This document shows, piece after piece, positions 7,145-59,624 of a stretch of DNA of 64,000 nt. How positions within the stretch are numbered: position 1 is the first letter of the stretch; every line of letters starts with the position of its first letter. The notes beneath the pieces are model-generated. The model was not told the origin of the DNA. It did no database searches and saw nothing but the letters and a program-made list of their open reading frames with translations. The position numbers and the translations under genes were made by a program. Source of the DNA: Serinicoccus profundi (GTDB lineage Bacteria > Actinomycetota > Actinomycetes > Actinomycetales > Dermatophilaceae); assembly GCF_008001015.1 (NCBI RefSeq), contig NZ_CP042862.1:1612001-1676000 (forward strand). Direction: 5' to 3'.

Positions 7145-7229
7145 CCATCTGCGACGCTCGGTGGGGCGTGGGGCGACCATCTGCGACGCTCGGTGGGGCG
7201 TGGGGCGACCATTTCCGACGCTCGGTGGG
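7145..7229. repeat. Tandem repeat array, locus 1 (three copies)
   Basis: Three copies start at 7145, 7177 and 7209, with a period of 32 bp. The conserved core reads CCATCTGCGACGCTCGGTGG, followed by a spacer of about 12 bp; the third copy has two changes (CCATTTCCG). The array sits between the cyclophilin gene and the promoter of the TrpR-like gene. The same core occurs at 14447-14566 and 59509-59624. Confidence 0.93.
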
Positions 7230-7234
7230 GATGT

Positions 7235-7256
7235 GTTAGCGTGTTAGCGCGTTATG
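7235..7256 (+). promoter_or_regulatory. Direct-repeat operator and promoter before the TrpR-like gene
   Basis: GTGTTAGC occurs twice head to tail (7235-7242 in part and 7241-7248), followed by the related GCGTTATG, giving an 8 bp phased series. TAGCGT at 7237-7242 could serve as a -10. Tandem half sites overlapping the promoter suggest autoregulation by the TrpR-like protein or another regulator. This is inference from position. Confidence 0.4.
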
Positions 7257-7260
7257 ACAG

Positions 7261-7359
7261 AGCAGGGCCCCGCGAACACGGCGACGACCAGACCGAAGAG
7301 CAGGGCAAGGCCAGAGAGCAGGGCAAGGCCAGACCCAAGAGCAGGGCCACGAGCAGGGC
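7261..7359 (+). repeat. Low-complexity leader with five AGCAGGGC words
   Basis: AGCAGGGC occurs at about 7261, 7299, 7317, 7340 and 7352 in an otherwise purine-rich stretch upstream of the TrpR-like gene. The spacings are irregular (38, 18, 23 and 12 bp). The region is open in the frame of the downstream gene and would encode a basic Arg/Pro-rich extension if translated. Confidence 0.6.
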
Positions 7360-7385
7360 CAAGACCAGACCGAGAGGGAGCGCGG

Positions 7386-7715
7386 ATGAAGCAGCGTGAC
7401 GGAGGTGGCACCGGCGCCCAGCAGCGCGCCCGCGCCGACCTCGTCGCGGTGCTGGCTGCGCTCCCGGACCCCGACGCCGTGGACGCCTTCCTCGACGACC
7501 TGTGCACGCCGGCCGAGATCGAGGCGATGGCCGACCGCTGGTCCGTGGTGCCCCTGCTCGCCGACGGTATGTCGTACCGCCAGATCCACGACGTCACCGG
7601 CGTGAGCGTGACGACGGTCGGGCGGATCGCCCGGTGCGTCGAGGGCGGCGCCGGCGGCTACCGCGCCGCGCTGGCCCATCGCCGCGAGCATCCGGCGGCG
7701 ACGACCTCCGCCTGA
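7386..7715 (+). CDS. TrpR-superfamily regulator (YerC/YecD type)
   Basis: A 109-residue all-helical protein. The central part reads DLCTPAEIEAMADRWSVVPLLADGMSYRQIHDVTGVSVTTVGRIARCV, the usual Trp-repressor-like helix-turn-helix with the SYRQIHDVTGVSVTTVGR recognition unit split across the last helices. The ATG at 7386 has a good AGAGGGAG ribosome site. A longer in-frame start at 7254 would add 44 basic, low-complexity residues and is less likely. The gene lies 89 bp before hisG on the same strand, so a role as histidine biosynthesis regulator is likely; TrpR-family HisR regulators beside his genes have been proposed in other bacteria (from memory). The ligand, possibly histidine, is inferred. 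Confidence 0.8.
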   Translation: MKQRDGGGTGAQQRARADLVAVLAALPDPDAVDAFLDDLCTPAEIEAMADRWSVVPLLADGMSYRQIHDVTGVSVTTVGRIARCVEGGAGGYRAALAHRREHPAATTSA

Positions 7716-7804
7716 GGCGCCCGACGGCGTGCGCCGCCCCCGACGCCCCACGATCTGCCTGCCCGCCGCACCCGGTGCGGCGCCCACGTCCACGGAAGGC
7801 CCCC

Positions 7805-8713
7805 ATGACCCCGCCTGCCCAGCCGCGCGAACGCCTGCGTGTGGCGATCCAGAAGTCCGGCCGCCTCGGCGACCCGGCCCGTGAGCTGCTCGCGTCCTGC
7901 GGGCTGACCTGGCGCGAGAGCCGCGACAAGCTCTTCTGCTACGGCGAGAGCCTGCCGGTCGACCTGCTGCTCGTCCGCGACGACGACATCCCCGGTCTCA
8001 TCGCCGACGGCGTCTGCGACCTCGGGATCGTCGGGCGCAACGTGCTCGTGGAGCACGGCCTGGCCCACCAGGCCCAGGGCCGCGGTATGGAGCTCACCGA
8101 GTGGCGCCAGCTGGGCTGGGGCACCTGCCGGCTCGACATCGCGATCGATGAGGAGCAGGAGTGGACCGGCCCCGAGCAGCTGGCCGGGATGCGCATCGCC
8201 ACGTCCTACCCCCAGACCCTCTCGCGCTGGCTCGACGAGCACGGCGTGCGCGCCGAGCCGGTCGTCCTGTCGGGGTCGGTCGAGATCGCCCCACGCCTGG
8301 GGCAGGCGGAGGTCGTCTGCGACCTGGTCTCCACCGGCGGCACCCTGCGGGCCAACCAGCTCAAGCCGGTGACGACGATCCTGCACAGCGAGGCCGTCAT
8401 CGCCGGCCCCCGTCAGCAGCTCGATGACGGGCGCCAGGAGATCGCCGACCTGCTCATCCGGCGCATCGACGGCGCGGTGCAGCTCAAGGAGTCGCGTCTG
8501 CTCATGCTGCGGGTCGCCCGCGACACGCTGCCGGCGGTCCTGCCGCTGCTGCCCGGCGGCCACGAGCCCACCCTCATGTCGGTCGAGGACCGCGACGAGG
8601 TCGCGCTCCAGATGCTCGTCCACGGCTCGGTGTCCTGGGCCCGGCTCGAGGACCTCAAGCGCGCCGGCGCGCACAACCTCATGGTCCTGCCCGTCGAGGG
8701 GATGCTGGCATGA
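7805..8713 (+). CDS. hisG: ATP phosphoribosyltransferase, long form
   Basis: A 302-residue enzyme that joins ATP and PRPP in the first, feedback-controlled step of histidine synthesis. [41 protein letters not shown] and [15 protein letters not shown] are all present, and residues about 225-302 form the C-terminal histidine-binding regulatory domain of the long form. Its wording resembles the Escherichia coli enzyme closely. A GGAAGG ribosome site precedes the ATG. A small hairpin at 7764-7782 (arms CGCCGCA and TGCGGCG) lies in the leader. The stop overlaps the hisD start as ATGA. Confidence 0.95.
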
Positions 8714-10023
8714 AGGTCCTCACCTGGAGCGAGCTCGACGACGCCCAGCGGGTCGAGGCCCTGCGCCGCGGCACCGCGGCCGCCGGGCCGGAGGTCACGG
8801 CCGGGGTCGCCCGGATCCTGGAGGAGGTCCGCGAGCGCGGCGATGCCGCCCTCGTCGACCTCACGAGGCGCCTCGACGGCGCCGAGCTCACCGACCTGCG
8901 GGTGCCGGTCGCCGACCGCGACGCCGCGGTCGCGGGCCTGGACCCCGAGCTGCGGGCCGCGATCGTGGAGGCCGCCGGACGCATCCGGACCTTCCACGAG
9001 GCCGGGATGCAGCAGGGGTATGCCGTGGAGACCGCCCCGGGGGTGGTGTGCCAGCGGGTGGTGCGCCCGATCCGGCGGGTGGGGCTCTACGTCCCCGCGG
9101 GCTCCGCGCCGCTGCCGAGCACGGCCCTCATGCTCGGGGTCCCCGCGCAGCTCGCCGGGTGCCCCGAGGTCGTGCTCTGCACGCCCCCGCGCCCGGACGG
9201 CACCGCCGACCCGGCGGTGCTCGCGGCGGCCGCGGAGTGCGGGATCGACCAGGTCGTCGTCGTGGGCGGCGCCCAGGCGGTCGCGGCGATGGCCTACGGC
9301 ACCGCGTCGGTCCCGCGGTGCGACAAGATCTTCGGCCCCGGCAACGCCTGGGTCACCGAGGCCAAGCGGCAGGTGAGCACCGCCGAGGGCGGGCCCGGCA
9401 TCGACATGCCGGCCGGCCCCTCGGAGGTGCTCGTCATCGCCGATGCCGGCGCCGACCCCGAGTTCGTCGCCGCGGACCTGCTCAGCCAGGCCGAGCACGG
9501 CCCCGACAGCCAGGTCGTGCTCCTCACCGACAGCCCGGAGCTGGCGTCGGCCGTGGCCGACCAGGTCGCCGAGCAGGTGGAGTCGCTGCCCCGTGCCGAC
9601 ATCGCGCGCAAGGCCCTGGCCTCCTCCCGGCTCGTCGTCACCGCCGACCTGGACGAGGCGGTCGAGGTCTCCAACGACTACGCCCCCGAGCACCTCATCC
9701 TGGCCCTGCGCGACGCCGCCGACTGGGTGGGCCGGATCGACCGGGCCGGCTCGGTCTTCCTCGGCGACCACACCCCGGAGACGCTGGGCGACTACTGCTC
9801 CGGCACCAACCACGTCCTGCCGACCGCCGGGGCGGCGCGCTTCACCGGTGGGGTCAACGTCGCGGCCTTCCAGATCGCCATGACCGTCCAGCAGGCCACG
9901 CCGCAGGGCCTGGCCACGGTCGGTCCCTGCGCGGTCACCCTCTCGGAGGCCGAGGCGCTGCACGCCCACCAGCGAGCGGTCACCCGTCGCCTGGCCCGTC
10001 TGGGCACGGAGGCGGCGACATGA
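8710..10023 (+). CDS. hisD: Histidinol dehydrogenase
   Basis: A 437-residue enzyme that oxidises histidinol to histidine with two NAD in the last two steps of the pathway. Signature segments are [67 protein letters not shown], the catalytic APEHLIL segment with Glu-His, and [13 protein letters not shown], which carries the metal ligands. It is second in the operon, with ATGA overlaps to hisG upstream and hisC downstream, so translation is coupled. Confidence 0.95.
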
Positions 10024-11198
10024 GCCTGGAGCGCCCGGAGCTCGCCTTCCCCGTCGAGCTGATCCGGCCCGACCTGCGTGACTTCACCGGCTACTCCTCG
10101 GCCCGCACCAGCGCCCCGACCGGCACGCCGGCCCGCGTGTGGCTCAACGCCAACGAGTCGGGCGTCCCCAACCCCGCCGACGCGGACGGCGCGTCGCGTC
10201 GCTACCCCGAGCCCCAGCCGCCCGCCCTCGTCGAGGCCTTCGCCGACCTGTGGGCGACCACCCCCGACCGGGTCGTGGTCGGACGCGGGAGCGATGAGGC
10301 CATCGAGCTGCTCGTGCGCAGCCTGTGCCGGCCCGGCGGCGACGCCGTCGTAGTCACCTCACCGACCTTCGGGATGTATGCCGTGTCCGCCCGCCTGCAC
10401 GGGGTCCCGGTCATCGACGTTCCCCAGGTCGACGACGAGCCGCGCTGGGGGGTCGACACCGAGGCGGTCGCCCGCGCGGCCCGCGAGGGTGGCGCCCGCA
10501 TCGTCTTCCTCGCCTCGCCCGGCAACCCCACCGGCTCCGTCGTGCCGCTGCGCGAGATCGCCCGCCTCACCGAGGCGCTCGCCGACCAGGCTGTCGTCGT
10601 CGTCGACGAGGCCTACGGCGAGTTCGCGGCCCAGCGCTCGGCGGTGACCCTCCTCGAGGAGCACCCGACGCTGGTCGTGCTGCGCACGCTGTCCAAGGCG
10701 CACGCCCTCGCCGGGGCCAGGGTGGGGATCGCCCTGGCCCACCCGGACCTCACCGCCGTCCTGCGCCGCGTCCAGGCGCCTTACCCGCTGCCGGAGCCGG
10801 TGACCGAGCTGGCGCTGCGGGCGCTGGCCCCGGCCGCCCTGGAGGCCACCGGCGAGCACGTCGGCGCCGTGCTGCGGCTGCGTGACCAGGTCGGCCGCTG
10901 GCTGCGCGACCTGCCCGGGGTGCGCACCGTCTACGCCAGCGAGGCCAACTTCTTCCTCATCCGGTGCGACGACCCGGAGGCGCTGCTGCATACCCTGGGC
11001 GCCGCCGGCATCGTGGTCCGCGACATGCGTCACCTGCCCGGACTCGACGACGCCCTGCGCATCACCATCGGCACCGGCCCGGAGATGGCCGAGCTGCGCT
11101 CGGCGCTCGACCGCGACGGCGACGCGGCTGCCACGACCTCCGCCGCGAGCACCCCAGCCCCACCCCGACCGACCCCGACCGAGGAGAGCCCCGCATGA
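10020..11198 (+). CDS. hisC: Histidinol-phosphate aminotransferase
   Basis: A 392-residue fold-type I PLP enzyme that converts imidazole-acetol phosphate to histidinol phosphate. [11 protein letters not shown] at the N-terminus, RRYPEPQP, the [10 protein letters not shown] loop, [10 protein letters not shown] and the PLP lysine in [14 protein letters not shown] are all present. Compared with the roughly 356-residue E. coli protein it has an extra Ala/Thr/Pro-rich tail of about 30 residues ([18 protein letters not shown]), probably disordered. Both ends overlap the neighbouring genes as ATGA. Confidence 0.94.
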
Positions 11199-12265
11199 GC
11201 CCCCGCCCGATCTGTTTCGTCGACCGCGACGGCACGATCATCACCGAGCCGCACGACCACCAGGTGGACGCGCTCGACAAGGTGGCCTTCGTCGACGGCG
11301 TCATCCCCGCGCTGCTGCGCATCCAGGGCGCCGGCTACGACCTCGTCCTGGTGAGCAACCAGGACGGCCTGGGCACCGACGCCTTCCCGCAGGCCGACTT
11401 CGACGCCGCGCACGGTCTGGTCATGCAGGTGCTGACCAGCCAGGGCGTGCGCTTCAAGGACGTCTTCATCGACCCCCACCACGCGGGCCCGGACGCGCCC
11501 TGGACCCGCAAGCCGGGCATCGGGATGGTCGCCCACCTGCTCAAGGACCGCGGCGTCGACTGGGACCGCAGCGTCATGGTGGGGGACCGGCCGACGGACC
11601 GGGAGTTCGGCGAGCGCCTGGGCGTGCGCACCTACCTCCTGCCGGGCGATGACTGGGACCAGATAGCGCACGAGCTCGCCGACGCCCCGCGCACCGCCCG
11701 GGTCGAGCGCGCCACCTCCGAGACGAGCATCGTCGTCGAGGTCGACCTCGACGCGACCGGCGGCAGCGAGATCTCCACCGGCATCGGCTTCTACGACCAC
11801 ATGCTCGACCAGCTCGCCAAGCACGGCGGCTTCCGCATGCGCGTCGACTGCCAGGGCGACCTGCACATCGACGACCACCACACCGTCGAGGACGTCGCCC
11901 TCGCGGTCGGCGAGGCGATCCGCACCGCCCTCGGCGACAAGCGCGGCATCGGCCGCTACGGCTTCACCCTGCCCATGGACGAGGCGCAGGCCACCGCGGC
12001 GCTCGACCTGTCCGGGCGGCCCTACTTCGCCTACGACGGCACCTTCGAGCGGGAGAGCGTCGGCGACTTCTCCACCGAGATGGTCGAGCACTTCTGGCGC
12101 TCCTTCGCCGACGCCATGCGGTGCACCCTGCACCTGTCGGTGACCGGCAGCAACACCCACCACATGATCGAGGTCGGCTTCAAGGCGGTCGCGCGGGCGC
12201 TGCGGATGGGGATCTCCCGGCAGGGGGACTCCGCCGAGCTGCCCTCGACGAAGGGCGTCCTGTGA
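11195..12265 (+). CDS. hisB: Bifunctional histidinol-phosphatase / imidazoleglycerol-phosphate dehydratase
   Basis: A 356-residue fusion. Residues 1 to about 165 are a HAD-type histidinol-phosphatase (HisN): [21 protein letters not shown] and [12 protein letters not shown]. Residues about 170-356 are the dehydratase, with [48 protein letters not shown] and the STKGVL terminus. The E. coli enzyme has a Cys/His zinc loop after the second HAD motif; here that stretch reads [18 protein letters not shown] without cysteines, so the structural zinc site is missing. From memory, Xanthomonas HisB is similar in this respect. The fusion is characteristic of gammaproteobacteria and is unusual in Actinobacteria. 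Confidence 0.94.
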
Positions 12266-12864
12266 GGGTCGCGCTCGTCGACGGGGGCGGCACCAACATC
12301 GGTTCGGTGAGCTATGCCCTGGAGCGCCTCGGCGCGACCAGCCGGCTCACCGCCGACCCCGCCGACATCCTCGCCGCCGACCGCGTCATCCTGCCCGGGG
12401 TCGGCGCGGCCGGGGCGGGCATGCGCCGGCTGCGCGAGCTCGGGCTCGTCGACGTGCTCGCCCAGGTGCAGGCGCCGCTGCTCGGGGTATGCCTCGGGAT
12501 GCAGCTGCTCTTCGAGCGCTCCGCGGAGGACGGCGGGGTGGCGACCCTGGGCCTCGTCCCGGGCGAGGTGGTCGGCATACCGGCCTCGGCGGGGGTGCGG
12601 GTGCCGCACATGGGGTGGAACTCCCTCACCGGCCTCGTCGACGACCCGTTGCTCACCGGGATCAAGGAGGGCGAGCGGGCCTACTTCGTGCACTCCTACG
12701 CCGCGCCCACCGGGCCGCACACCCTCGCCTCGACCGACCACGGCGGCAGCTGGAGCGCCGTGGTGCGCTCCGGTCTGCGGTGGGGTGCGCAGTTCCACCC
12801 GGAGAGGTCCTCGTCGCTCGGCGCGCGGCTTCTGCGAAACTTTCTCGTGGAGGTCGATCGATGA
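12262..12864 (+). CDS. hisH: Imidazole glycerol phosphate synthase, glutaminase subunit
   Basis: A 200-residue class I glutamine amidotransferase that supplies ammonia to HisF. The nucleophile Cys lies in [13 protein letters not shown], and the His and Glu of the triad lie in [20 protein letters not shown] and YFVHSYAA are also typical. Translation starts at a GTG that overlaps the hisB stop (GTGA), and its own stop overlaps hisA as ATGA. Confidence 0.94.
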
Positions 12865-13655
12865 CGCCTGACCTTCGCACCGACACCGGAGAGATCCCCG
12901 TGACCCAGAGCGGCCCGTTCACCGTCTATCCCGCCATCGACGTGCGTGGCGGCGCCGTCGTGCGCCTGCACAAGGGCGACTACGACCAGGAGACCCGCTA
13001 CACCGACAACCCGGTGGCGGTCGCCGAGAACTACGCCCGCTCCGGCGCCGCCTGGCTGCACCTCGTCGACCTCGACGCGGCCCGCGCCGGCGGCTACACC
13101 CTCATCGACACGCTCACCACGGTCGTCGAGACCACCGGTCTGCGGGTGCAGACCGGGGGCGGCGTGCGCAGCAGCGACGACGTGCAGCAGCTGCTCGACG
13201 CCGGCGCGGAGCGGGTCGTCGTCGGGTCGCTCGCGGTCCGCGAGCCGCAGACGGTCCGCGGCTGGCTGGACCGCTTCGGGCCCGACCGCATCACCGTGGC
13301 GCTCGACACCCGCATCGGCGAGGACGGGCGGTGGGTGCTGCCCACCTCGGGCTGGACCTCGGTGGGGGAGCAGGACCTCACGACCACGCTCCACGACTAC
13401 CACGGCTCCGGTCTGCGGCACGTGCTGTGCACCGACATCGGCCGGGACGGCACGCTGTCCGGCCCCAACTTCCACCTCTACACCATGCTCACCCGCTCCA
13501 ACCCGGCCCTGCAGATCCAGGCCTCGGGCGGGGCCCGGTCGGTCGACGACGTCCGCGCCGCCAAGCGGCAGGGGTGCGCGGGGATCATCCTCGGCAAGGC
13601 GCTCCTCGAGGGCCGCCTCACCGTCGCCGACGCGATGCTGGAGGAGCAGGTATGA
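12861..13655 (+). CDS. hisA: Phosphoribosylformimino-AICAR phosphate isomerase
   Basis: A 264-residue (beta/alpha)8 barrel with a roughly 18-residue N-terminal extension. It has the catalytic Asp early in [40 protein letters not shown], and a second Asp in [15 protein letters not shown]. These segments match E. coli HisA much better than the actinobacterial dual-function PriA. If that is right, this protein does not replace TrpF, and a separate trpF should exist in the genome. ATGA overlaps at both ends. Confidence 0.92.
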
Positions 13656-14425
13656 CGCTCGCCCGCCGGATCATCCCGTGCCTGGACGTGCGCGAGGGTC
13701 GGGTCGTCAAGGGCACCCGCTTCCGCGACCACCGGGACATGGGCGACATCGTCGAGCTCGCGCAGCGGTATGCCGCCTCCGGCGCCGACGAGCTCGTGTT
13801 CTACGACATCACCGCGAGCCCCGAGGGGCGCGGCGTCGACGTCGGCTGGGTGGAGCGGGTGGCCCGGGCCATCGACATCCCCTTCTGCGTCGCCGGTGGC
13901 ATCCGCTCGGTGGAGACCGCCCGGGCCGTCCTGCACGCCGGGGCGGACAAGGTGTCGGTCAACACTCCCGCCACGCAGCGCCCGGAGCTCGTCGGCGAGC
14001 TCGCGGAGGCCTTCGGAGTGCAGTGCGTCGTCGTCGGGGTCGACAGCCTGCGCGACGAGGACGGCCACTGGCGGATCCGTCAGTTCACCGGTAACCCGGA
14101 CGCCACCCGCGCCCTGGAGGTGACCACGCTGGACTGGGTGCGCCGCGTCGTCGACCTCGGCGCGGGCGAGGTCGTGCTCAACTGCATGGGCTCCGACGGC
14201 GTGCGGGAGGGCTACGACCTGGAACAGCTGGCCGCCGTCCGCGAGGTGTGCCCGGTGCCGCTGGTGGCCAGCGGCGGCGCCGGCGCCACCCAGCACTTCA
14301 TCGACGTCTTCGCCGAGGCGGACGTCGACGGGGCCCTGGCCGCCACGGTCTTCCACGACGGCTCCATCCCCATCCCCTCCCTCAAGCAGAGCCTGGCCGC
14401 CGCCGGGATCGAGGTGCGCGCATGA
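13652..14425 (+). CDS. hisF: Imidazole glycerol phosphate synthase, cyclase subunit
   Basis: A 257-residue (beta/alpha)8 barrel that closes the imidazole ring using ammonia from His[18 protein letters not shown] at the N-terminus contains the catalytic Asp11 equivalent, [16 protein letters not shown] contains the second Asp, and [12 protein letters not shown] is the phosphate-binding segment. Overlaps as ATGA with hisA and hisIE. Confidence 0.95.
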
Positions 14426-15177
14426 CCACCACCCCGCCCCCGTCCCCCGACCGAGCGTCGCAGATGGTTGCTCCTGACCCCGACCGGGCGTCGCAGATGG
14501 TTGCTCCTGACCCCGACCGGGCGTCGCAGATGGTTGCTCCTGATCCCCACCGAGCGCCGCAGATGGTCGACTTCGCCGTCGAGGACGTCGACTTCAGCAA
14601 GCTCGGCGAGCCTGGTCTCGTCCCCGGCGTCGTGCAGCACGCCCGCACCCGACAGGTCCTCATGGTCGGGTTCCTCGACGAGCAGGCCCTGCGCACGACG
14701 CTCGAGACCGGCCTGGCCACCTTCTGGAGCCGCAGCCGGGGTGCGCAGTGGACCAAGGGGGAGACGAGCGGCAACGTGCTCGCCGTCGAGCGGGTCGAGC
14801 TGGACTGCGACCGCGACACCTTGCTGCTGCACGCCATACCGACCGGCCCGACGTGCCACACCGGTGAGCCGACCTGCTTCGATCCCGGTGCGCAGCCGGG
14901 GTCCTTCGTGCACGAGCTCGACGAGGTCGTGGAGACCCGGGCGCAGGAGCGGCCGGAGGGGTCCTACACCACCAGCCTCTTCGAGGGCGGCGTGCGGCGC
15001 ATCGCCCAGAAGGTCGGTGAGGAGGGCGTCGAGACGGCACTGGCTGCTGTCGCCCAGGACGACGAGGCGCTGCTGGGGGAGTCGGCCGACCTCGTCTACC
15101 ACCTCCTCGTGCTCCTCCGCTCCCGCGACCTCGGCCTCGGCGACGTCGAGCGGGTGCTGCGCGAGCGTCACGGCTGA
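14422..15177 (+). CDS. hisI: Fused phosphoribosyl-AMP cyclohydrolase / phosphoribosyl-ATP pyrophosphatase
   Basis: A 251-residue HisIE fusion that carries out steps two and three of the pathway. Residues about 50-150 are HisI ([53 protein letters not shown] with metal-binding Cys). Residues about 160-251 are HisE ([33 protein letters not shown]). The first 48 residues are unusual: an 11-residue unit [11 protein letters not shown] is repeated from residues 10, 21 and 32, with a fourth variant at 43. This is the translation of a tandem DNA repeat also found between genes elsewhere in the window. Translation could instead start at the internal ATG at 14563, which would leave the repeat untranslated. 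It is the last gene of the operon. Confidence 0.93.
14447..14566. repeat. Tandem repeat array, locus 2 (four copies, inside hisIE)
   Basis: Four copies of the core, in the opposite orientation to loci 1 and 3, end at 14467, 14500, 14533 and 14566, so the period is exactly 33 bp. Loci 1 and 3 have a period of 32 bp. The extra base per unit keeps the hisIE frame open. Confidence 0.93.
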
Positions 15178-15184
15178 GCTTATC

Positions 15185-15200
15185 GTCAACCAGGGTTGAC
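15185..15200. promoter_or_regulatory. Palindromic operator 1 of the HTH/Clp-N unit
   Basis: GTCAAC-CAGG-GTTGAC, a perfect 6 bp inverted repeat with a 4 bp centre (7 bp arms if the inner C/G pair is counted). The same half sites and spacing recur 27 bp downstream. Confidence 0.7.
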
Positions 15201-15211
15201 ACTCGACCGCT

Positions 15212-15227
15212 GTCAACCTACGTTGAC
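15212..15227. promoter_or_regulatory. Palindromic operator 2 of the HTH/Clp-N unit
   Basis: GTCAAC-CTAC-GTTGAC, ending 3 bases before the ATG at 15231. The HTH protein encoded next is the obvious candidate to bind both sites and repress its own operon. Confidence 0.7.
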
Positions 15228-15230
15228 GGT

Positions 15231-15491
15231 ATGACGTTTCCGCTCCTCGATCTCGGGCAGGCGGCCCGCGCTGCCTCCGAGACCGGTGAGCCGGCCGCAG
15301 CGCTGCGCGCCGCGGCCCGGCTGCGTCAGCTGACCGAGGCGGTCGAGCTCCGGCAGGTGGAGGCGGCCCTCGAGGCCGGCCTGTCGTGGGCCCAGATCGC
15401 CGACTGCCTGGGCGTCACGCGCCAGGCGGCGCACAAACGCTTCCGGTCGCGGGTGCGCCCGGACCTGGTGAAGGGGAGTCGATCTCGATGA
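15231..15491 (+). CDS. Small helix-turn-helix DNA-binding protein
   Basis: An 86-residue helical protein. The second half contains a clear sigma-region-4-like helix-turn-helix: GLSWAQIADCLGVTRQAAHKRF at about residues 50-71. The first half (LRAAARLRQLTEAVELRQVEAALEAG) is amphipathic helix. There is no room for a ligand domain, so any sensing must come from the partner gene, whose start overlaps this stop as ATGA. The two palindromes directly upstream point to autoregulation. Small HTH proteins paired with Clp-N domain proteins are a recurring actinobacterial arrangement (general knowledge); the trigger is unknown. Confidence 0.75.
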   Translation: MTFPLLDLGQAARAASETGEPAAALRAAARLRQLTEAVELRQVEAALEAGLSWAQIADCLGVTRQAAHKRFRSRVRPDLVKGSRSR

Positions 15492-16507: not shown

Positions 16508-16510
16508 GCC

Positions 16511-25549: not shown

Positions 25550-25623
<74 letters not shown>

Positions 25624-44693: not shown

Positions 44694-44694
44694 G

Positions 44695-50397: not shown

Positions 50398-50415
50398 TGT
50401 CCCGGCGTGGCGCCG

Positions 50416-50444: not shown

Positions 50445-50500
50445 CGACCTGTGCACATGAGGCACGTCAGTCACACGAGTCACAACTGCGAGGAGGACCG

Positions 50501-51094
50501 GTGAACGCTGGAGCAGACGCGCCAGGCGGAACGGGACGCGGGCCGGCACAGCAGCCGGTCGGGTCCCAGGGTCTGCTGTTCACCGACGACACCGCAGCGC
50601 TGGACGACGGCATCGGCTACCGCGGCCCCACGGTCTGCGGCGCGGCCGGCGTCACCTACCGCCAGCTCGACTACTGGGCCCGCACCGGCCTGCTCGAGCC
50701 CTCCGTGCGCAACCCCTCCGGGTCCGGCACCCAGCGGCTCTACAGCTTCCGCGACATCCTCGTCCTCAAGATCATCAAGCGGCTGCTGGACACCGGCATC
50801 TCGCTGCAGCAGATCCGGGTCGCCGTCAACGCGCTCCGCGAGCGAGGCGTCCAGGACCTCGCCCACATCACCCTCATGAGCGACGGGGCCAGCGTCTACG
50901 AGTGCACGAGCGACGACGAGGTCATCGATCTGGTCCGCGGCGGGCAGGGCGTCTTCGCCATCGCCGTCGGCAGCGTCTGGCGCGAGGTCGAGGGCCAGTT
51001 GGCGCAGTTGCCGAGCGAGCGGGCCGACGAGCCCGTGGGTGAGCACCCCGGCGACGAGCTGTCCGCGCGGCGACGCGCCCGCAAGACCTCCTGA
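50501..51094 (+). CDS. MerR-family regulator
   Basis: A 197-residue protein with a MerR winged helix at residues about 40-115 (YRGPTVCGAAGVTYRQLDYWARTGLLEPS, LYSFRDILVLKIIKRLLDTGISLQQIRVAV) and a dimerisation and ligand region with VYECTSDDEVIDLVRGGQGVFAIAVG. It corresponds to Rv1830 of the mycobacterial block. An AGGAGG ribosome site precedes the GTG at 50501. Confidence 0.85.
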   Translation: MNAGADAPGGTGRGPAQQPVGSQGLLFTDDTAALDDGIGYRGPTVCGAAGVTYRQLDYWARTGLLEPSVRNPSGSGTQRLYSFRDILVLKIIKRLLDTGISLQQIRVAVNALRERGVQDLAHITLMSDGASVYECTSDDEVIDLVRGGQGVFAIAVGSVWREVEGQLAQLPSERADEPVGEHPGDELSARRRARKTS

Positions 51095-51134
51095 GGGGGC
51101 ACCGCTCCCGGTCGGCGCGGCGGTACGGTCCTGC

Positions 51135-51140
51135 TAGATT
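51135..51140 (+). promoter_or_regulatory. -10 box of the gcvP promoter
   Basis: TAGATT about 25 bases before the riboswitch aptamer, correctly placed to start the leader transcript. The -35 is not clear. Confidence 0.45.
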
Positions 51141-51158
51141 GTGGGCTGCCGATGACGT

Positions 51159-51260
51159 CGCGTGGGAGAGTCCTCCTCGCACTGCGGTGAGGCGCCGAAG
51201 GGGCATACTCCCCACCAAGCTCTCAGGCGCCCGGGACCACGCGGAACAGGCAACTCTGGA
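51159..51260 (+). promoter_or_regulatory. Glycine riboswitch
   Basis: The conserved glycine-aptamer words appear in order: GTGGGAGAG, GAGGCGCCGAAGGGGCA, CTCTCAGGCGCCCGGGACC, AACAGGCAACTCTGGA. One aptamer is clear; I do not see a second complete one. A hairpin directly after it (GTCCCG at 51263-51268 with CGGGAC at 51274-51279) may be part of the expression platform, and the gcvP ribosome site follows 40 bases later. Glycine should switch on gcvP. Confidence 0.9.
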
Positions 51261-51332
51261 ACGTCCCGTTGCTCGGGACCGGCAAAGGGGGAGGTGCCAG
51301 CGCAGGCCCGAGCCCGAAGGAGCCGTACGTCC

Positions 51333-54233: not shown

Positions 54234-54303
54234 GCCACGGGGTCTGCGCCCCGCAGGGCTCCGGTAGTGGTGGAGCGGCCCACATTGTGTGAGGATTCAG
54301 CGC

Positions 54304-55839
54304 ATGGGCCAAGAGGTGAGTCACAGCGAGTTCACGCGTGAGCAGCGGCTGGCGTTCCGTGCCAAGGTCCGCGACGACCTGGACTGCTTCGAGCAGATGC
54401 TCGAGGGCAGCAGGTTCGACTTCACCCGGCCGCAGATGGGCCTGGAGATCGAGCTCAACCTCGTCGACGAGGAGTCCCTGGACCCGGCGCTGCGCAACCG
54501 CGAGGTGCTGGCCGACATCGGTGAGGTCGACTTCCAGACCGAGGTCGGCCGCTACAACATCGAGCTCAACGTGCCGCCGCGGCCGATGGCCGGTGACCAG
54601 GCGGTGCGTCTGGAGCGGTGGCTGGCACAGTCGATGCGCCGGGCGGGCGATGCGGCCCGCGGTCACCAGTGCCGCGTCGCCTCGGTCGGCATCGTCCCGA
54701 CGCTGGAGGCCGAGCTCTTCGACCAGCCGTGGCTGTCCGACGGCGTGCGCTACACCGCCCTCAACGACTCCCTGATCCGGGAGCGCGGGGAGGGCTTCGA
54801 GCTGGACATCGAGGGCGCGACGGGTGAGCGGGTCCAGAGCTACCACGACACCATCGGGCCGCTGTCCGGGTGCACCTCGGTGCAGCTGCACCAGCAGGTG
54901 ACCCCGCTGGACTTCCCGGTCTACTGGAACGCCGCCACCGTGATCTCGAGCCTGCAGATCGCGGTCGGCGCCAACTCGCCCTACCTGTTCGGCAAGCGGC
55001 TGTGGGCCGAGACCCGGATCCCGCTGTTCACCCAGATGACCGACACCCGCTCCATCGAGCTCAAGCACCAGGGAGTGCGTCCCCGGGCCTACTTCGGCCG
55101 CACCTGGATCACCTCGATCTTCGACCTCTTCGAGGAGAACGTCCGGTCCTTCCCGGCGTTGCTGCCGGAGACCTCGGACGAGGATGCCAAGGCGGTGCTC
55201 GCCTCGGGCGGGGTGCCGAAGCTGTCCGACCTCAAGCTGCACAACGGCACGGTATGGCGCTGGAACCGGCCGATCTACGACATGACCCAGGGCGTGCCGC
55301 ACCTGCGGGTGGAGAACCGCGTGCTGCCGGCCGGGCCGACGGCCGTCGACACGGTCGCCAACGCGTGCTTCTACTACGGGCTGCTGGAGTCCTTCACCAC
55401 GAGCGGACGCCCGATCTGGACGAAGATGACCTTCGCCGACGCCGACCGCAACTTCCGGGAGGCGGCCAAGCACGGCATCGAGGCGACCCAGGCGTGGCCG
55501 GGGCTCGGCACCCTGCCGGCGGTCGACCTCATCGCCGACCACCTGTTGTCGGTCGCCGACGACGGCCTGGCCGCGCTGGGGCTGCGCCGCGAGGTCCGCA
55601 GCCACTACCTGTCGATCATCGAGGGGCGCTGCCGTGCGGCCACCAACGGTGCGAGCTGGCAGGTCGCGGTGACCGAGGCCTACGAGGCCGCGGGCTACTC
55701 CCGGCACGAGGCGCTGCGCGCGATGTTCGGCCACTACCTCGACCACTCCGAGGAGAACATCCCGGTGCATACCTGGGACGTCCCCACGGTCGAGGCGAGG
55801 ACCGGTCAGCCCCCCGTGGCGGAGGAGCGCTCGGCCTAG
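54304..55839 (+). CDS. Glutamate-cysteine ligase family 2 (GCS2) protein
   Basis: A 511-residue protein of the carboxylate-amine ligase GCS2 fold. MGLEIELNLVDEESLDP contains the Glu pair for metal binding, and FQTEVGRYNIELNVPPRPM, SGCTSVQLHQQVTP and LRVENRVLPAGPTAVDT are further core segments. Family members make gamma-glutamyl bonds (gamma-glutamylcysteine or, for EgtA, the ergothioneine precursor). In mycothiol-using Actinobacteria the substrate of this version is not settled. The stop codon shares CTAG with the stop of the converging phosphatase gene. Confidence 0.82.
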   Translation: MGQEVSHSEFTREQRLAFRAKVRDDLDCFEQMLEGSRFDFTRPQMGLEIELNLVDEESLDPALRNREVLADIGEVDFQTEVGRYNIELNVPPRPMAGDQAVRLERWLAQSMRRAGDAARGHQCRVASVGIVPTLEAELFDQPWLSDGVRYTALNDSLIRERGEGFELDIEGATGERVQSYHDTIGPLSGCTSVQLHQQVTPLDFPVYWNAATVISSLQIAVGANSPYLFGKRLWAETRIPLFTQMTDTRSIELKHQGVRPRAYFGRTWITSIFDLFEENVRSFPALLPETSDEDAKAVLASGGVPKLSDLKLHNGTVWRWNRPIYDMTQGVPHLRVENRVLPAGPTAVDTVANACFYYGLLESFTTSGRPIWTKMTFADADRNFREAAKHGIEATQAWPGLGTLPAVDLIADHLLSVADDGLAALGLRREVRSHYLSIIEGRCRAATNGASWQVAVTEAYEAAGYSRHEALRAMFGHYLDHSEENIPVHTWDVPTVEARTGQPPVAEERSA

Positions 55840-56465
55840 CGGTGGTTCCAGGCCTCGATCGTGGGCTGCTCGCGGTGGTGGCCCAGGATCGCGACGGCAC
55901 CCACCTCGAAGGTCAGGTGCTGACCGAACCTCGGGGCCTGACGGAGGTAGACGCTGGTGAGGATCCGCAACGCGTGGCCGTGCCCCACGAGGGCGACGTC
56001 ACCCTCGAAGAGGTGGGGCCACACGCGCTCCAGCACGACGCTGGCCCGCCCGGCCACCTGCTCCACGGTCTCGCCCGGGGTGTCGCCGGGCACGACCCCG
56101 TGGTGGAAGACATTCCACCGGTAGCCCAGCTCGCGCCGGATCTCCGGTGTGCTGCGGCCCTCGTAGCCGCCGTAGTCCCACTCGCGGAGGTCCTCGTCGA
56201 TCTCGTCGACGCGGAGCCCGGCGAGTCGCGCCGTGTCGCGGGCGCGCTGCATCGGTGAGCACCGCACGTGGGAGAAGGAACGCCCGGCCAGCACGTCGGT
56301 GAGCCCGGCGGCCGCACGCTCTCCCTCGGGCAGCAGGGGCAGGTCGGTCAGACCGGTGTGCTGACCCGACCGGGACCACTCGGTCTCGCCGTGCCGGATG
56401 AGGACGAGCCGGTGGGGCGGGATCGCAGGGCCGGGGATCTCGGTCTGGCTCGTCGCGTCACTCAT
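55836..56465 (-). CDS. Histidine phosphatase (phosphoglycerate mutase-like)
   Basis: A 209-residue enzyme. The phosphohistidine signature LVLIRHGETEWS is at about residue 20, RCSPMQRARDTA follows, the acid is in LREWDYGGYEG, and the second His is in ALVGHGHALRIL. GHTGLTDLPL is typical of the small cytosolic acid phosphatase group. Substrate not predictable. It is divergent from the OsmC gene, with starts 18 bp apart. Confidence 0.87.
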   Translation of the reverse strand: MSDATSQTEIPGPAIPPHRLVLIRHGETEWSRSGQHTGLTDLPLLPEGERAAAGLTDVLAGRSFSHVRCSPMQRARDTARLAGLRVDEIDEDLREWDYGGYEGRSTPEIRRELGYRWNVFHHGVVPGDTPGETVEQVAGRASVVLERVWPHLFEGDVALVGHGHALRILTSVYLRQAPRFGQHLTFEVGAVAILGHHREQPTIEAWNHR

Positions 56466-56483
56466 CCCTGGCACACTACCGGC

Positions 56484-56915
56484 ATGGCTGACGACGCATA
56501 CCGCTCCGTGTCCCTGACCCGCACCGGCCCCGGTCACTTCGAGGCACGCAACGCCCGGGGCGGCACGATCCCGGTCGGCATGGGTGCCGGTGACGACGGC
56601 GGGGCCTTCTCCCCGGTCGAGCTGCTGCTCGTGGCGGTCGCCGGGTGCTCCGGGATCGACATCGACCTGCTGACCTCCCGCAAGGCGGAGCCGACGTCCT
56701 TCGAGATCGGCGCGGGCGCGGAGAAGGTGCGCGACGAGGAGGGCAACCACCTCGGGCCCGTGACGGTGACCGTGCAGGTGAACTTCCCCGACGGTGCGGA
56801 GGGTGACGCGGCCCGCGAGCGGCTGCCCGAGGCGGTCGCGAAGTCCCGCGACCGACTGTGCACGGTGTCCCGCACGGTCGCGCTGCCCACCCCGGTCGAC
56901 TTCGAGATCAGCTGA
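56484..56915 (+). CDS. OsmC-family protein
   Basis: A 143-residue protein of OsmC fold. Its single central Cys is in LLVAVAGCSGIDID, where the family peroxidatic Cys sits, and a C-terminal Cys is in KSRDRLCTVSRTV, so the two-cysteine peroxidase pair is present. It probably reduces organic hydroperoxides or reactive sulfur species. The ATG at 56484 has CACACT 6 bases before it (leaderless pattern). Confidence 0.85.
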   Translation: MADDAYRSVSLTRTGPGHFEARNARGGTIPVGMGAGDDGGAFSPVELLLVAVAGCSGIDIDLLTSRKAEPTSFEIGAGAEKVRDEEGNHLGPVTVTVQVNFPDGAEGDAARERLPEAVAKSRDRLCTVSRTVALPTPVDFEIS

Positions 56916-56948
56916 GCCCGGCCCTCGGTATGCCCCGCGCCGGTGTGG

Positions 56949-57581
56949 TCACGGCGGCGGCTTCGAGGGGTGGGCGGGGCGCGGCTGCTCGGCCGGCCCG
57001 GTGTGCAGGTGGCCGGCGTCCCGCAGCTGCTCCTGCACCCGGTGGGCGCCCTTGACCCCGAGCAGTGCGCGAGGGTGGATGGCCTGCCCGGCGCGGACCA
57101 CGGAGATGCGCCCGTTGGGCTCGAGGACGACGAGGGCGACCTGGGTGAGGTGGCTGACCCCGGCCTGGCGCAACGAGCTCCAGAGCATGGTGGTGGTGAG
57201 GCCGTAGCTGCGCATGGTGTCGTTCTGCACCTTGCCGGCCACCACGAGGACCACGGCGCGGGCTCGGGACTGGCCGTCCAGCTGGGGCAGCGGCAGCCGG
57301 CGCAGGTTGCGGAAGAGCACCTCCAGCGTGGCCAGGGTGCCGAGCGCGATGAGACCCCCGCTGAGCGTCGGCACGTGCCCCATCGTGGAGCGGCCGACGA
57401 TGGCGCCGAGGACGGTCACGATGGCCAGGTCGAGGCTGCGGGGGCTGGAGTAGAGGCGTTGGCCCCACAGCCGCAGGACCGCGCCGAAGACGAAGTAGAT
57501 CGTCACGGTGCTGAGCACGACGGCGATCGCCCCGGCGGGGGTGATTCCGATGTAGTGCCACAGGTCGCGCATGGCAGACAT
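56949..57581 (-). CDS. DUF421 (YetF/YcaP-like) membrane protein
   Basis: A 210-residue protein with three membrane helices near the N-terminus (GAIAVVLSTVTIYFVFGAVL, IVTVLGAIVGRSTMG, LIALGTLATLEVLF) and a cytoplasmic domain with ALVVLEPNGRISVVR and RALLGVK. Members are found in many envelopes and their role is unknown. It starts at MSAMRDLWHYIGITP; the second ATG 9 bases later is equally possible. Confidence 0.82.
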   Translation of the reverse strand: MSAMRDLWHYIGITPAGAIAVVLSTVTIYFVFGAVLRLWGQRLYSSPRSLDLAIVTVLGAIVGRSTMGHVPTLSGGLIALGTLATLEVLFRNLRRLPLPQLDGQSRARAVVLVVAGKVQNDTMRSYGLTTTMLWSSLRQAGVSHLTQVALVVLEPNGRISVVRAGQAIHPRALLGVKGAHRVQEQLRDAGHLHTGPAEQPRPAHPSKPPP

Positions 57582-57632
57582 GGTGGCAGACGGCACCCGA
57601 CAAACCAGTGGTGGTCCGTCGGTGCCGTGCGG

Positions 57633-57638
57633 CAGGCT
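57633..57638 (+). promoter_or_regulatory. -10 box before the tandem GNAT gene
   Basis: CAGGCT, 6 bases before the ATG at 57645; same leaderless spacing as other genes in the window. Confidence 0.4.
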
Positions 57639-57644
57639 GGACCC

Positions 57645-58652
57645 ATGAGCACCACCGAGACGACGGCATACCGCTGGGCGACGCTGACCCCGGCGGACCT
57701 CGACGCGTGGGCGGAGTTGGTCAACCACCTCGCCGTCGTCGACCGCACCGAGGAGTTCGTCAGCGCCGAGGACCTCGCCGAGGAGCTCGCCAGCCCCGGG
57801 CACGACCCGGAGCGGGACACCTGGGCGGTCTGGGCCGGTGAGCGGCTGATCGCCGTCGCCACCGTCGTCGTGCCGACCACGCCGGACAACGAGGGGCAGG
57901 CCCGCGCCTACCTCGGGGGCGGGGTGCACGCCGAGCACCGCCGCCGCGGGCTCGGCACGGCGCTGTTCGACGCTGCCGAGGCGCGCGGGGTCGAGCTGCT
58001 GCGTGAGCGCCACCCGGGCGTGTCCGCCTACCTCGCGGCGGGCGGGGAGCTGCCAGGGGCGCCGGTGCGCGACCTGCTCCACGATCGCGGCTATGCCATC
58101 GTCCGCTACTACAACTTCCTCACCCGTGGTCTGGACGACGTCCCGGAGGCGCCCGAGATCGAGGGGATCGAGCTCGTGACGCCGAGGCCCGAGGACGAGG
58201 AGGCGGTGCGGATCGCGCACAACGCAGCCTTCCGCGACCACTGGGGCTCGGGGCAGATCGATCCCGAGCGCTGGCACGAGCACTGGGTCTCCCGCAGCTC
58301 GCGGCCGGCGTTGTCGACCCTCGCCCGCGGGGTCGGCGGGGAGGAGGACGGCCAGGTGCTGGCCTACATCCTCGTCGGTCAGTGGGTCGAGCGGGAGTCC
58401 TACGTCAACATCGTCGGGACGGTCCCGAGCGCTCGCGGGCGCGGCCTCGCGGCAGCCGCCCTCGCCCGCACCATCGCGGTCGTGGCCGCGACCGGAGACT
58501 TCGACGTCATCGAGCTCGACGTCGACTCCGAGAGCCTCACCGGCGCCACCCGGCTCTACGACCGGTTGGGCTTCCGGCTCAAGCACACCACGGCGGCGAT
58601 GCGCCGCCCGGTGCCCGGTTCTGGTCCCGAGCCGGCGCCGGACGCGGGGTAG
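57645..58652 (+). CDS. GNAT N-acetyltransferase with two GNAT domains
   Basis: A 335-residue protein built from two GNAT folds. Domain 1 (residues about 8-170) has VHAEHRRRGLGTALFDAAEA; domain 2 (about 175-325) has IVGTVPSARGRGLAAAALAR, so each has an acetyl-CoA-binding R/Q-x-x-G-x-G/A loop. The two-domain layout recalls mycothiol synthase, but key neighbours are lacking, so the acceptor is unknown. Confidence 0.82.
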   Translation: MSTTETTAYRWATLTPADLDAWAELVNHLAVVDRTEEFVSAEDLAEELASPGHDPERDTWAVWAGERLIAVATVVVPTTPDNEGQARAYLGGGVHAEHRRRGLGTALFDAAEARGVELLRERHPGVSAYLAAGGELPGAPVRDLLHDRGYAIVRYYNFLTRGLDDVPEAPEIEGIELVTPRPEDEEAVRIAHNAAFRDHWGSGQIDPERWHEHWVSRSSRPALSTLARGVGGEEDGQVLAYILVGQWVERESYVNIVGTVPSARGRGLAAAALARTIAVVAATGDFDVIELDVDSESLTGATRLYDRLGFRLKHTTAAMRRPVPGSGPEPAPDAG

Positions 58653-58677
58653 CCGGACGGGTGCGCGAGCCGGAGGT

Positions 58678-58683
58678 TAGTCT
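58678..58683 (+). promoter_or_regulatory. -10 box before the alpha/beta hydrolase gene
   Basis: TAGTCT, 6 bases before the GTG at 58690. Confidence 0.5.
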
Positions 58684-58689
58684 CGGGCG

Positions 58690-59508
58690 GTGAGCGACAC
58701 GTCTGCAGCGTCGGGAAGCCTGGGGCCACTGGCCCAGACCGTCATCGGCGACAGCGGGCCGACCGTCGTCTTCTGCCACGGCCTGCTGGGCCGGGGGCGC
58801 AACTTCACCGGGATCGCCAAGGCGCTGCAGCCGGACTTCCGCTGCGTGCTGCTAGACATGCCCGACCACGGCGCCTCGCCGTGGACCGAGCGCATCGACT
58901 ACGCCAGCGCGTCAGCCCTGCTCGTCCAGCAGTTGGAGACCCTCGCGACCGACGGGCCCGTGCACCTGGTCGGGCACTCGATGGGCGGCAAGACCGCGAT
59001 GACGGCCGCCCTGGAGACGCCTGCACTCGTCGACCGGCTCGTCGTGGTGGACATCAGCCCGACCGGGGCAGGGGAGGTGGGGGAGTTCGAGCACCTCATC
59101 TCCTCGTTGCTGGCGATCGACCTCGACGCCATCACCTCGCACGGGCAGGCGGACGCCGAGCTGGCCGCTGCGGTGGACTCACGGATGTTGCGAGGTTTCC
59201 TGCTGCAGAACCTCCGTCGCGATCCGCAGACCCACGCCTTCGGGTGGCAGCCCCACCTCGAGGTGCTGCTGCGCGACCTCGGCACGATCACCGGGGACGT
59301 CCCGCACGAGGGACGCACCTTCGACGGGCCGGTGCTGTGGATCGCCGGCAGCGAGTCGCCCTACGTCACCACCGCTCACGAGGGGCCGATGCGCGAGCTC
59401 TTCCCGCGCACGGTGCAGGTGACCATCAAGGGGGCCGGCCACTGGGTGCACTCCGAGCAACCGGCGGCCTTCACCGCCACATTGCGGCACTTCCTGCGCG
59501 CCCGCTGA
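58690..59508 (+). CDS. Alpha/beta-fold hydrolase
   Basis: A 272-residue hydrolase. The oxyanion strand is VVFCHGLLGRGRNF, the nucleophile elbow LVGHSMGGKTAM (Ser), the acid probably Asp in LWIAGSESPYV or a preceding turn, and the His in GAGHWVHSEQP. The sequence is closest in style to YbfF-like esterases. It starts at a leaderless GTG. Its TGA stop codon is directly followed by, and shares a base with, the first copy of tandem repeat locus 3. Confidence 0.87.
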   Translation: MSDTSAASGSLGPLAQTVIGDSGPTVVFCHGLLGRGRNFTGIAKALQPDFRCVLLDMPDHGASPWTERIDYASASALLVQQLETLATDGPVHLVGHSMGGKTAMTAALETPALVDRLVVVDISPTGAGEVGEFEHLISSLLAIDLDAITSHGQADAELAAAVDSRMLRGFLLQNLRRDPQTHAFGWQPHLEVLLRDLGTITGDVPHEGRTFDGPVLWIAGSESPYVTTAHEGPMRELFPRTVQVTIKGAGHWVHSEQPAAFTATLRHFLRAR

Positions 59509-59624
59509 CCATCTGCGGCGCTCGGTGGGGCTGAGGGCGACCATCTGCGGCGCTCGGTGGCCCCGGGGGCGACCATCTGCGGCGCTCGGTGGGCCCGTGG
59601 GTGACCATCTGCGGCGCTCGGTGG
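59509..59624. repeat. Tandem repeat array, locus 3 (four copies)
   Basis: Four copies start at 59509, 59541, 59573 and 59605, with a period of 32 bp. The core CCATCTGCGGCGCTCGGTGG is identical in all four, while the 12 bp spacers differ. The array fills the gap between the hydrolase stop and the promoter of yciO, whose -10 (TATGGT) begins at the end of the last core. Confidence 0.94.

What the first reader, a model, noticed from the sequence alone, without database searches (positions are those of the whole stretch)
7145..59624. A dispersed short tandem repeat family at three loci
A 20 bp core, CCATCTGCGRCGCYCGGTSG, is repeated 3 times at 7145-7229, 4 times at 14447-14566 (opposite orientation) and 4 times at 59509-59624. 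Cores are nearly invariant, spacers of 12-13 bp vary, and the phase is strict (32, 33 and 32 bp, about three helical turns). Each array touches a gene edge: before the TrpR-like gene, at the hisF-hisIE junction, and between a stop codon and the yciO promoter. Fixed core plus variable spacer at helical phase suggests a protein-binding array or a mobile repeat. I do not recognise it as a described family.
Basis: seen in the sequence. Interest (0 to 1): 0.85.

Follow-up and report, generated by a model that had tools for sequence, protein, structure and literature searches.

The report
Repeat arrays with species-specific code words
A marine actinobacterium carries about a hundred small clusters of one 32-letter DNA repeat, mostly just after genes; relatives share many of the clusters but spell a four-letter word inside each repeat differently, as if an unknown molecule that reads it had changed its taste.

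Summary
The three arrays (11 units) belong to a genome-wide family: 351 cores within 2 mismatches against 4 for the reversed pattern, roughly 360-450 units by extrapolation. It was found only in Serinicoccus: 37 of 37 stretches with an exact four-unit pattern among 84,980 species, 0 of 394 other genomes of the order, 10 of 31 in the genus. Arrays sit just after stop codons, prefer convergent genes, and also lie in frame inside conserved enzymes. Opposed neighbouring arrays are head-to-head in 38 of 40 cases, with gaps mostly 11-14 or 21-24 bp.

The surprise is comparative. Arrays occur at the same place in species 82-85% identical. Core positions 4-7 are largely uniform across loci in the window's species (TCTG) with little locus memory, while positions 10, 14, 19 and the spacer, a few bases away, stay locus-specific. 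That argues against gene conversion or re-insertion and favours selection by a sequence-specific reader whose preference changed. REP membership fails on hairpin and end tag; no Y1 transposase was found in 31 genomes. Function (gene-boundary binding array) is inferred, not shown.

The parts
7145..7228 (+). Array 1: three units, period 32, 12 bp spacers, directly upstream of a conserved GTGTTAGCG... operator/promoter-like sequence before the TrpR-related gene
   Evidence: an array at this place also in G040 and G021, none in G039, G017, G043, G044
14448..14566 (-). Array 2: four units, period 33, in frame in the 5' part of hisIE (peptide [11 protein letters not shown] repeated), antisense to the gene
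   Evidence: the HisIE model starts to match at residue 52, after the array
59509..59624 (+). Array 3: four units, period 32, starting at the TGA stop codon and ending beside the -10-like sequence of the next gene
   Evidence: absent from 5 of 5 relatives in which both flanking genes were found
13652..14425 (+). hisF
14422..15177 (+). hisIE with the array inside its N-terminal extension (start codon uncertain: 14422 or 14563)
7386..7715 (+). YerC/YecD-family TrpR-related gene downstream of array 1
6417..7112 (-). peptidyl-prolyl isomerase-like gene on the other side of array 1
   Evidence: weak family matches below cut-off
58690..59508 (+). alpha/beta hydrolase-like gene whose stop codon touches array 3
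   Evidence: matches below the curated cut-offs
59637..60257 (+). L-threonylcarbamoyladenylate synthase (TIGR00057) downstream of array 3

Best explanation
A Serinicoccus-restricted family of dispersed tandem arrays that works at the level of double-stranded DNA. Each 32 bp unit (GCRA-CCA-YNNR-CGRCGCYCGGTSG-G-about 7 variable bases) is a binding site for one sequence-specific factor, which occupies several units side by side on one face of the helix at gene ends, above all between convergent genes. There it probably acts as a boundary: blocking or ending transcription, or holding supercoils. Positions 4-7 are the part of the site whose preferred letters change when the factor's preference changes, so the word is rewritten by point mutation and selection at most arrays of a genome while neighbouring bases stay as inherited. 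Arrays arise from single units and then grow and shrink by whole units. Shown: genome-wide spread, placement, prevailing head-to-head order, unit gain and loss, shared positions between species, word change without change of neighbours (clearest in G000). Inferred: the factor, its binding, the boundary function, and selection as the cause.
For: Species effect on positions 4-7 across loci: 0.285, 0 of 500 permutations; 0.102 without G000 (0 of 500); 0.246 without G040 (0 of 500); for the spacer 31, 199 and 40 of 500 permutations reach the observed value in the same three tests. For G000 against five relatives, same locus vs other loci: positions 4-7 0.411 vs 0.393 (16 of 300 permutations), positions 10/14/19 0.591 vs 0.520 (0 of 300), spacer 0.408 vs 0.369 (0 of 300); within G000 across loci 0.82, 0.53 and 0.39. 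Opposed neighbours within 300 bp over all held loci: 38 head-to-head, 2 tail-to-tail; head-to-head gaps 11-14 (12), 21-24 (15), 39, 44, 55 and eight above 100 bp, orthologous pairs included; in sampled stretches 24 of 24 head-to-head. G000 alone: 13 gaps up to 70 bp, Rayleigh p about 1e-4 at 10.5 bp. Intergenic period 32 in 178 of 187 spacings in G000. Convergent 38 of 104 sites vs 82 of 482 background, p 2.4e-5; divergent 14 of 104 vs 124 of 482, p 0.007; outer edge within 30 bp of a flanking stop codon 98 of 128. No base-pair covariation inside the unit.
Against: No factor was identified and no binding or expression data exist. The word effect is strongest in one genome (G000) and clear in a second (G040, mostly C[AG][ACG]G); the other four share a TTCG-like mixture. 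Only 25 loci carry the test, species are related, and the permutations do not model the tree. Positions 4-7 keep locus memory among the four closer species (0.604 vs 0.499, 0 of 300) and a marginal trace in G000 (16 of 300). In G040 positions 10/14/19 show no locus memory either (230 of 300), at least partly because A10 is fixed there. The Rayleigh value is inflated by the cluster at 12 bp; the phase evidence proper is the cluster one turn further, and one gap (39) is out of phase. Two tail-to-tail neighbours break the head-to-head rule (L053 of G011; the matching G039 locus is in the list). Orientation bias relative to transcription is moderate (30 of 42) and absent in G000 (12 of 22).
Confidence: 0.42

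Rival explanations
1. An uptake-signal-like system: a DNA-uptake receptor prefers fragments with the word, and transformation plus recombination spreads the word by molecular drive, giving species dialects as in the Neisseriaceae DUS.
For: The closest parallel for the dialect pattern: DUS has species dialects, inverted pairs linked to terminators, common intragenic copies and a binding protein, ComP (passages of PMC3630211). A ComEC-type gene (PF03772) is in 29 of 31 genomes of the genus, own included.
Against: Tandem arrays are not a feature in the DUS paper ('tandem' 0 occurrences in its main text). PF03772 is equally present in congeners without arrays. Competence of Serinicoccus is not established here; no ComP-like receptor was sought.
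Confidence: 0.2
2. A selfish REP-like or MITE-like repeat moved by an unknown transposase and homogenised by recombination, without host function.
For: Genus-restricted, uneven between species (32-bp tandem matches 237 in G000, 151 in G040, 10 in G007, 5 at one place in G004, 0 in 21 of 31), presence/absence at orthologous sites, in-frame presence in unrelated enzymes in at least three reading frames, as described for Rickettsia palindromic elements (passages of PMC10969869).
Against: 0 of 31 genomes of the genus have a Y1 transposase while 5 of 14 control genomes do; this speaks against RAYT only, since CGTC-type REPs are said to lack a dedicated transposase (passages of PMC3733652). In G000 cross-locus uniformity stops within about 3 bp of positions 4-7, too short for ordinary conversion or re-insertion. 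0 viral contigs carry the exact 2-unit pattern.
Confidence: 0.2
3. RNA-level 3'-end elements: head-to-head pairs are long hairpin terminators or mRNA stabilisers; single arrays are C-rich unstructured tracts that favour Rho.
For: 15 of 15 pairs fold better than shuffles, z -1.6 to -21.8; position after stop codons and between convergent genes; the sense strand is the C-rich one in 30 of 42 single arrays between tandem genes.
Against: Single arrays do not fold better than shuffles (mean z +0.57 and +0.56 on the two strands, 21 arrays). The in-unit hairpin shows no covariation. No reason for species words, nor for gaps in steps of one turn. In G000 only 12 of 22 have the C-rich sense.
Confidence: 0.13

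Closest known systems
DNA uptake sequence (DUS) dialects of Neisseriaceae
   Same: Short motif in many copies, species dialects, inverted pairs associated with terminators, common intragenic copies (passages of PMC3630211)
   Different: Here the word sits in a 20 bp core inside tandem 32 bp arrays; no receptor known; no evidence of competence
REP/BIME elements with RAYT transposases
   Same: Gene-end position, convergent preference, head-to-head pairs, lineage-restricted, hundreds of copies
   Different: No self-complementary unit, no GTAG/CGTC end tag, no Y1 transposase in 31 genomes; tandem direct arrays dominate
Rickettsia palindromic elements (RPE)
   Same: In-frame presence in unrelated housekeeping genes
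   Different: RPE are about 150 bp palindromes (passages of PMC10969869); here short units in tandem arrays, mostly intergenic
Minisatellites / VNTR such as MIRU (recalled)
   Same: Tandem units that change copy number between species (4 vs 3 units in hisIE of G000 and G039)
   Different: Dispersed over about a hundred loci with a shared core, prevailing orientation rule and species word

Membership tests
REP/BIME | self-complementary (hairpin-forming) unit | tested here: not met
   single arrays mean z +0.57 and +0.56; position pairs 4-17, 5-16, -1/19 no covariation
REP/BIME | RAYT (Y1 transposase) in the genome, for GTAG-type REPs | tested here: not met
   PF01797 0 of 31 genomes, controls 5 of 14; CGTC-type REPs are said to lack a dedicated transposase (passages of PMC3733652)
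REP/BIME | constant GTAG or CGTC tag at one end | tested here: not met
   unit ends are CCA and GGTSG; the internal CGRCG varies A/G; definition from passages of PMC3733652
REP/BIME | extragenic, at gene 3' ends, convergent preference | tested here: met
Uptake sequence (DUS/USS) | species dialects of one motif | tested here: met
   (two clear dialects, G000 and G040)
Uptake sequence (DUS/USS) | promotes DNA uptake / natural transformation | not testable with these tools
   only PF03772 (ComEC-type) presence seen, 29 of 31
Uptake sequence (DUS/USS) | scattered single copies (recalled) | tested here: not met
   77 of 83 arrays found in G000 have 2-8 units; the detection rule asks a lone unit for an exact match, so lone degenerate units are undercounted
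CRISPR | unique spacers of about 30 bp (recalled) | tested here: not met
   12-13 bp spacers with conserved edges, more alike within an array than between arrays; cas genes were not searched for
Minisatellite/VNTR | head-to-tail copies with copy-number variation | tested here: met
   hisIE 4/3/4/4/1 units in G000/G039/G017/G043/G044; CobQ 4/3/3/1/1 in G000/G044/G043/G017/G039
MITE / transposon end | target-site duplication and mobilising transposase | tested here: inconclusive
   occupied/empty comparisons show partial GACC-type microhomology, no clear duplication; relatives too distant for a clean test; only Y1 transposases were sought

The most novel reading that the evidence does not exclude
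A genome-wide four-letter recognition word inside about a hundred tandem arrays was rewritten in place in at least two Serinicoccus species, tracking a fast-evolving reader of DNA (a new boundary-binding or uptake system in actinobacteria) that owes nothing to known REP, CRISPR or insertion-sequence machinery.
Probability: 0.38. Interest if true: 0.86.

Novelty: new variant of a known kind. Interest (0 to 1): 0.66.

Why it matters
It is a natural experiment in how a genome changes the spelling of a binding word at many places at once. It also adds an actinobacterial family to a field of repeats known mostly from Proteobacteria (the passages of PMC3733652 read name no Actinobacteria).

Tried and rejected
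Intra-unit RNA/DNA hairpin: rejected, no covariation and no extra stability in single arrays. RAYT/IS200 mobilisation: rejected for lack of any Y1 hit; other transposases were not searched. Rfam: at the gathering threshold only a tRNA and a glycine riboswitch in the window, nothing at the arrays. CRISPR: rejected on spacer anatomy. CGTC-type REP: considered because the reverse strand holds CGTC or CGCC; not met, since that motif is internal and variable. Phage origin: exact 2-unit pattern 0 in viral contigs. A viral scan with the hisF protein gave nothing and was of no use. Peptide function of in-gene arrays: unlikely, since at least three reading frames are used (DRASQMV, PPSVADG, LRRSVG). 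Mutational bias as cause of the word change: unlikely, TTCG to TCTG needs T>C and C>T at adjacent positions (inference). Literature, search listings only: Micrococcales/REP terms (3 papers), Serinicoccus+repeat (20 papers, 15 listed), concerted evolution/REP (36, 15 listed), BIME/gyrase (14, 12 listed), REP/RAYT+Actinobacteria (0), intergenic tandem repeats/32-bp/actinobacter (11), Ornithinimicrobium+tandem repeat (0): no title or abstract start shown describes this family; closed-access papers and supplements were not searchable.

Counts to qualify: gene calls come from my own codon-usage finder, so context counts differ; the background is own-genome only while the sites come from several species, some of them orthologous. 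Loci L212-214, L219-221, L226-228 and L233-235 (species G017, G043 or G044) were unlabelled and left out of the species tests. Ortholog rows mapped more than 150 bp from an aligned block, or not within 350 bp of an own array on the same strand, were dropped; for relatives only unique units were kept. Own-genome arrays are partly chosen from listed hits that over-represent the + strand, so replication-strand bias was not tested. In one search at least four of the 20 stretches were placed on listed sites. One search used a 33 bp pattern by an oversight and counts 33-period arrays only; the 32 bp pattern was run on all 31 genomes.

Full report
OBSERVATION. The three arrays are present as described, with two end coordinates off by one. 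Allowing 3 mismatches, the window has 13 matches against 0.48 expected, and 0 of 100 shuffles reach that; 11 of the 13 are the described units.

EXTENT. The genome (one contig, 3,475,711 bp) holds 351 cores within 2 mismatches, against 4 for the reversed pattern. In 864 kb of 41 stretches, some of them chosen, I found 31 arrays with 112 units; in 720 kb of unselected stretches, 21 arrays with 74 units. Extrapolated, that is roughly 360-450 units in 100-125 arrays. The same detection on reversed sequence gave 0 arrays.

WHO HAS IT. An exact four-unit pattern scanned over 84,980 bacterial and archaeal species hit 37 stretches, all Serinicoccus (S. chungangensis, S. sediminis, S. kebangsaanensis and two uncultured; near copies of the own genome may be left out there, and shorter or degenerate arrays would be missed). 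With a two-unit pattern and 2 mismatches, 2 of 396 genomes of an order-wide sample matched, both of this genus; 0 of the 394 others did. Within the genus 10 of 31 genomes match: 237 (own, G000), 151 (G040), 93 (G039), 89 (G043), 81 (G017), 66 (G044), 50 (G021), 28 (G011), 10 (G007) and 5 at one place in G004; 21 of 31 have none.

ANATOMY. Across species the unit is GCRA-CCA-YNNR-CGRCGCYCGGTSG-G followed by about 7 variable bases. In G000 the intergenic period is 32 bp in 178 of 187 spacings. Inside called ORFs of G000 12 of 19 spacings are multiples of three (33 or 48 bp) against 8 of 187 outside; in the relatives' samples only 1 of 6 in-ORF spacings is. The hisIE array, whose start was called late, counts there as outside. 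Two opposed arrays within 300 bp stand minus-then-plus, with the CCA ends inward, in 24 of 24 cases in the sampled stretches and in 38 of 40 distinct cases over all loci held. Both exceptions lie in one compound locus of G011 (L053), and the list shows the same at G039:C22:111073-111187. The 38 head-to-head gaps are 11-14 bp (12), 21-24 (15), 39, 44, 55 and eight above 100; orthologous pairs are included. In G000 the 13 gaps up to 70 bp give a Rayleigh p near 1e-4 at 10.5 bp; much of that comes from the cluster at 12, so the telling part is the second cluster, one helical turn further.

PLACEMENT. Over four sets of species there are 104 intergenic sites: 38 convergent against 82 of 482 in the own-genome background (p 2.4e-5), 14 divergent against 124 of 482 (p 0.007). 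The outer array edge lies within 30 bp of a flanking stop codon in 98 of 128 cases. Some of these sites are orthologous and so not independent. Single arrays between tandem genes have the C-rich strand as sense in 30 of 42 (p 0.008), but only 12 of 22 in G000.

ARRAYS INSIDE GENES. In G000 arrays lie in frame in HisIE, CobQ, a ThiF-rhodanese protein, NAD synthase, a NuoF-like protein, two lipoyl proteins, methylmalonyl-CoA mutase, an MFS transporter and a MaoC-domain protein, as far as the family matches show mostly between or beside domains. At least three reading frames are used (DRASQMV, PPSVADG, LRRSVG). The HisIE model begins matching right after the array and the CobQ model breaks at it. 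This fits tolerance of something that acts as DNA, not selection for a peptide.

GAIN, LOSS AND AGE. At hisF-hisIE the array has 4 units in G000, 3 in G039, 4 in G017, 4 in G043, 1 in G044 and 3 (32 bp period) in G040; none was seen in G021, G011 or more distant congeners, and G007 has another duplication there (30 loci examined, one without hisIE on the piece). Array 1 is also in G040 and G021 but not in the closer G039, G017, G043 and G044 (closeness by hisF identity); array 3 is in G000 only, of six species in which both flanks were found. In CobQ one degenerate unit in G017 and G039 stands against 3-4 units in G043, G044 and G000. The NuoF-like array is in G000 only, of nine species compared. 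At the empty sites the native sequence partly resembles the unit's start: GACC in 4 of 5 relatives at array 3, GACCACGAG in 3 of 8 at the NuoF-like gene. This hints at microhomology but is no proven target rule. Yet 25 of 69 own arrays already have an array at the same place and orientation in at least one relative among the pieces I happened to hold, so many are old. Syntenic stretches of six relatives are 82-85% identical to the window.

THE WORD. In these 25 loci (281 units) core positions 4-7 are alike across loci within a species and unlike between species at the same locus: same species, other locus 0.66; other species, same locus 0.47; background 0.41. The spacer does the reverse: 0.39, 0.48 and 0.38. 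Permutation: species effect on 4-7 is 0.285, 0 of 500; without G000 0.102, 0 of 500; on the spacer 31 and 199 of 500 respectively. For G000 the word has hardly any memory of the locus (16 of 300), while positions 10/14/19 in the same core (0 of 300) and the spacer (0 of 300) do. G000 reads TCTG in 164 of 229 unit contexts; G040 mostly C[AG][ACG]G with A at position 10; the other four a TTCG-like mixture. A conversion tract that changes positions 4-7 but spares position 10 would have to be only a few bases long, and re-insertion would bring its own spacer. Selection by a reader with changed preference explains the pattern most simply. Limits: one species dominates, the loci are few, the tree is not modelled, positions 4-7 do keep locus memory among the four closer species (0.604 vs 0.499), and in G040 positions 10/14/19 have none (230 of 300).

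MECHANISM. I commit to a DNA-bound array at gene boundaries, read cooperatively by an unidentified factor. The direct-repeat period near three turns, gaps between opposed arrays of about one and two turns, lack of in-unit covariation and presence in both orientations and inside genes all point to double-stranded DNA. What binding does (end or block transcription, hold supercoils, mark DNA for uptake) is open. Head-to-head pairs would also make strong RNA hairpins (15 of 15 pairs, z -1.6 to -21.8), so a terminator role for that subset is compatible; single arrays do not fold.

COMPARISON. REP/BIME elements share placement but the family fails on palindromic unit and end tag, and on the transposase expected of GTAG-type REPs. 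DUS dialects share species-specific spelling, inverted pairs and intragenic copies (passages of PMC3630211) but not tandem arrays; PF03772 in 29 of 31 genomes leaves the uptake reading open. Rickettsia palindromic elements share in-frame presence in genes (passages of PMC10969869). No paper on this family was found in the searches listed under Tried and rejected.

Noticed in passing
G010:C1:905024-905340 (L039, L054): A cousin array in a congener without the 32-bp family: period 33, core CCAYCYGACGCGCTCGGTGG, centre ACGCG in place of CGACG.
   Followed up: no
G004:C1:3295564-3295743: A single degenerate array (CCACACGAGACGCTCGGTGG type, 5 tandem matches) in a congener outside the main carriers; perhaps an early or decayed form.
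   Followed up: no
L053 (G011:C1:699831-700180) and G039:C22:111073-111187: A compound locus with alternating array orientations, including the only tail-to-tail neighbours seen.
   Followed up: partly
window 7253-7385: Between array 1 and the TrpR-related gene, a stretch of imperfect repeats of the type AGAGCAGGGCAAGGCCAG, not seen at this place in six relatives.
   Followed up: no
L136 (G007 hisF-hisIE): A different duplication with a hairpin-like CCGGACACCCCGTATGTCCGG-type sequence sits where others have the array.
   Followed up: no
core positions 10 and 14, all species: G10-C14 together (which would make GGCGCC) is rarer than G10-T14, A10-C14 or A10-T14 (51 vs 224, 159 and 133 of 570); perhaps restriction-site avoidance.
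   Followed up: partly
array flanks, e.g. L007, L014, L018, L056, L125: GGCATACC / GGTATGCC-like sequence stands right beside several array ends; enrichment not tested.
   Followed up: no
window 51153-51249 and 25550-25623: A glycine riboswitch aptamer and a tRNA.
   Followed up: no
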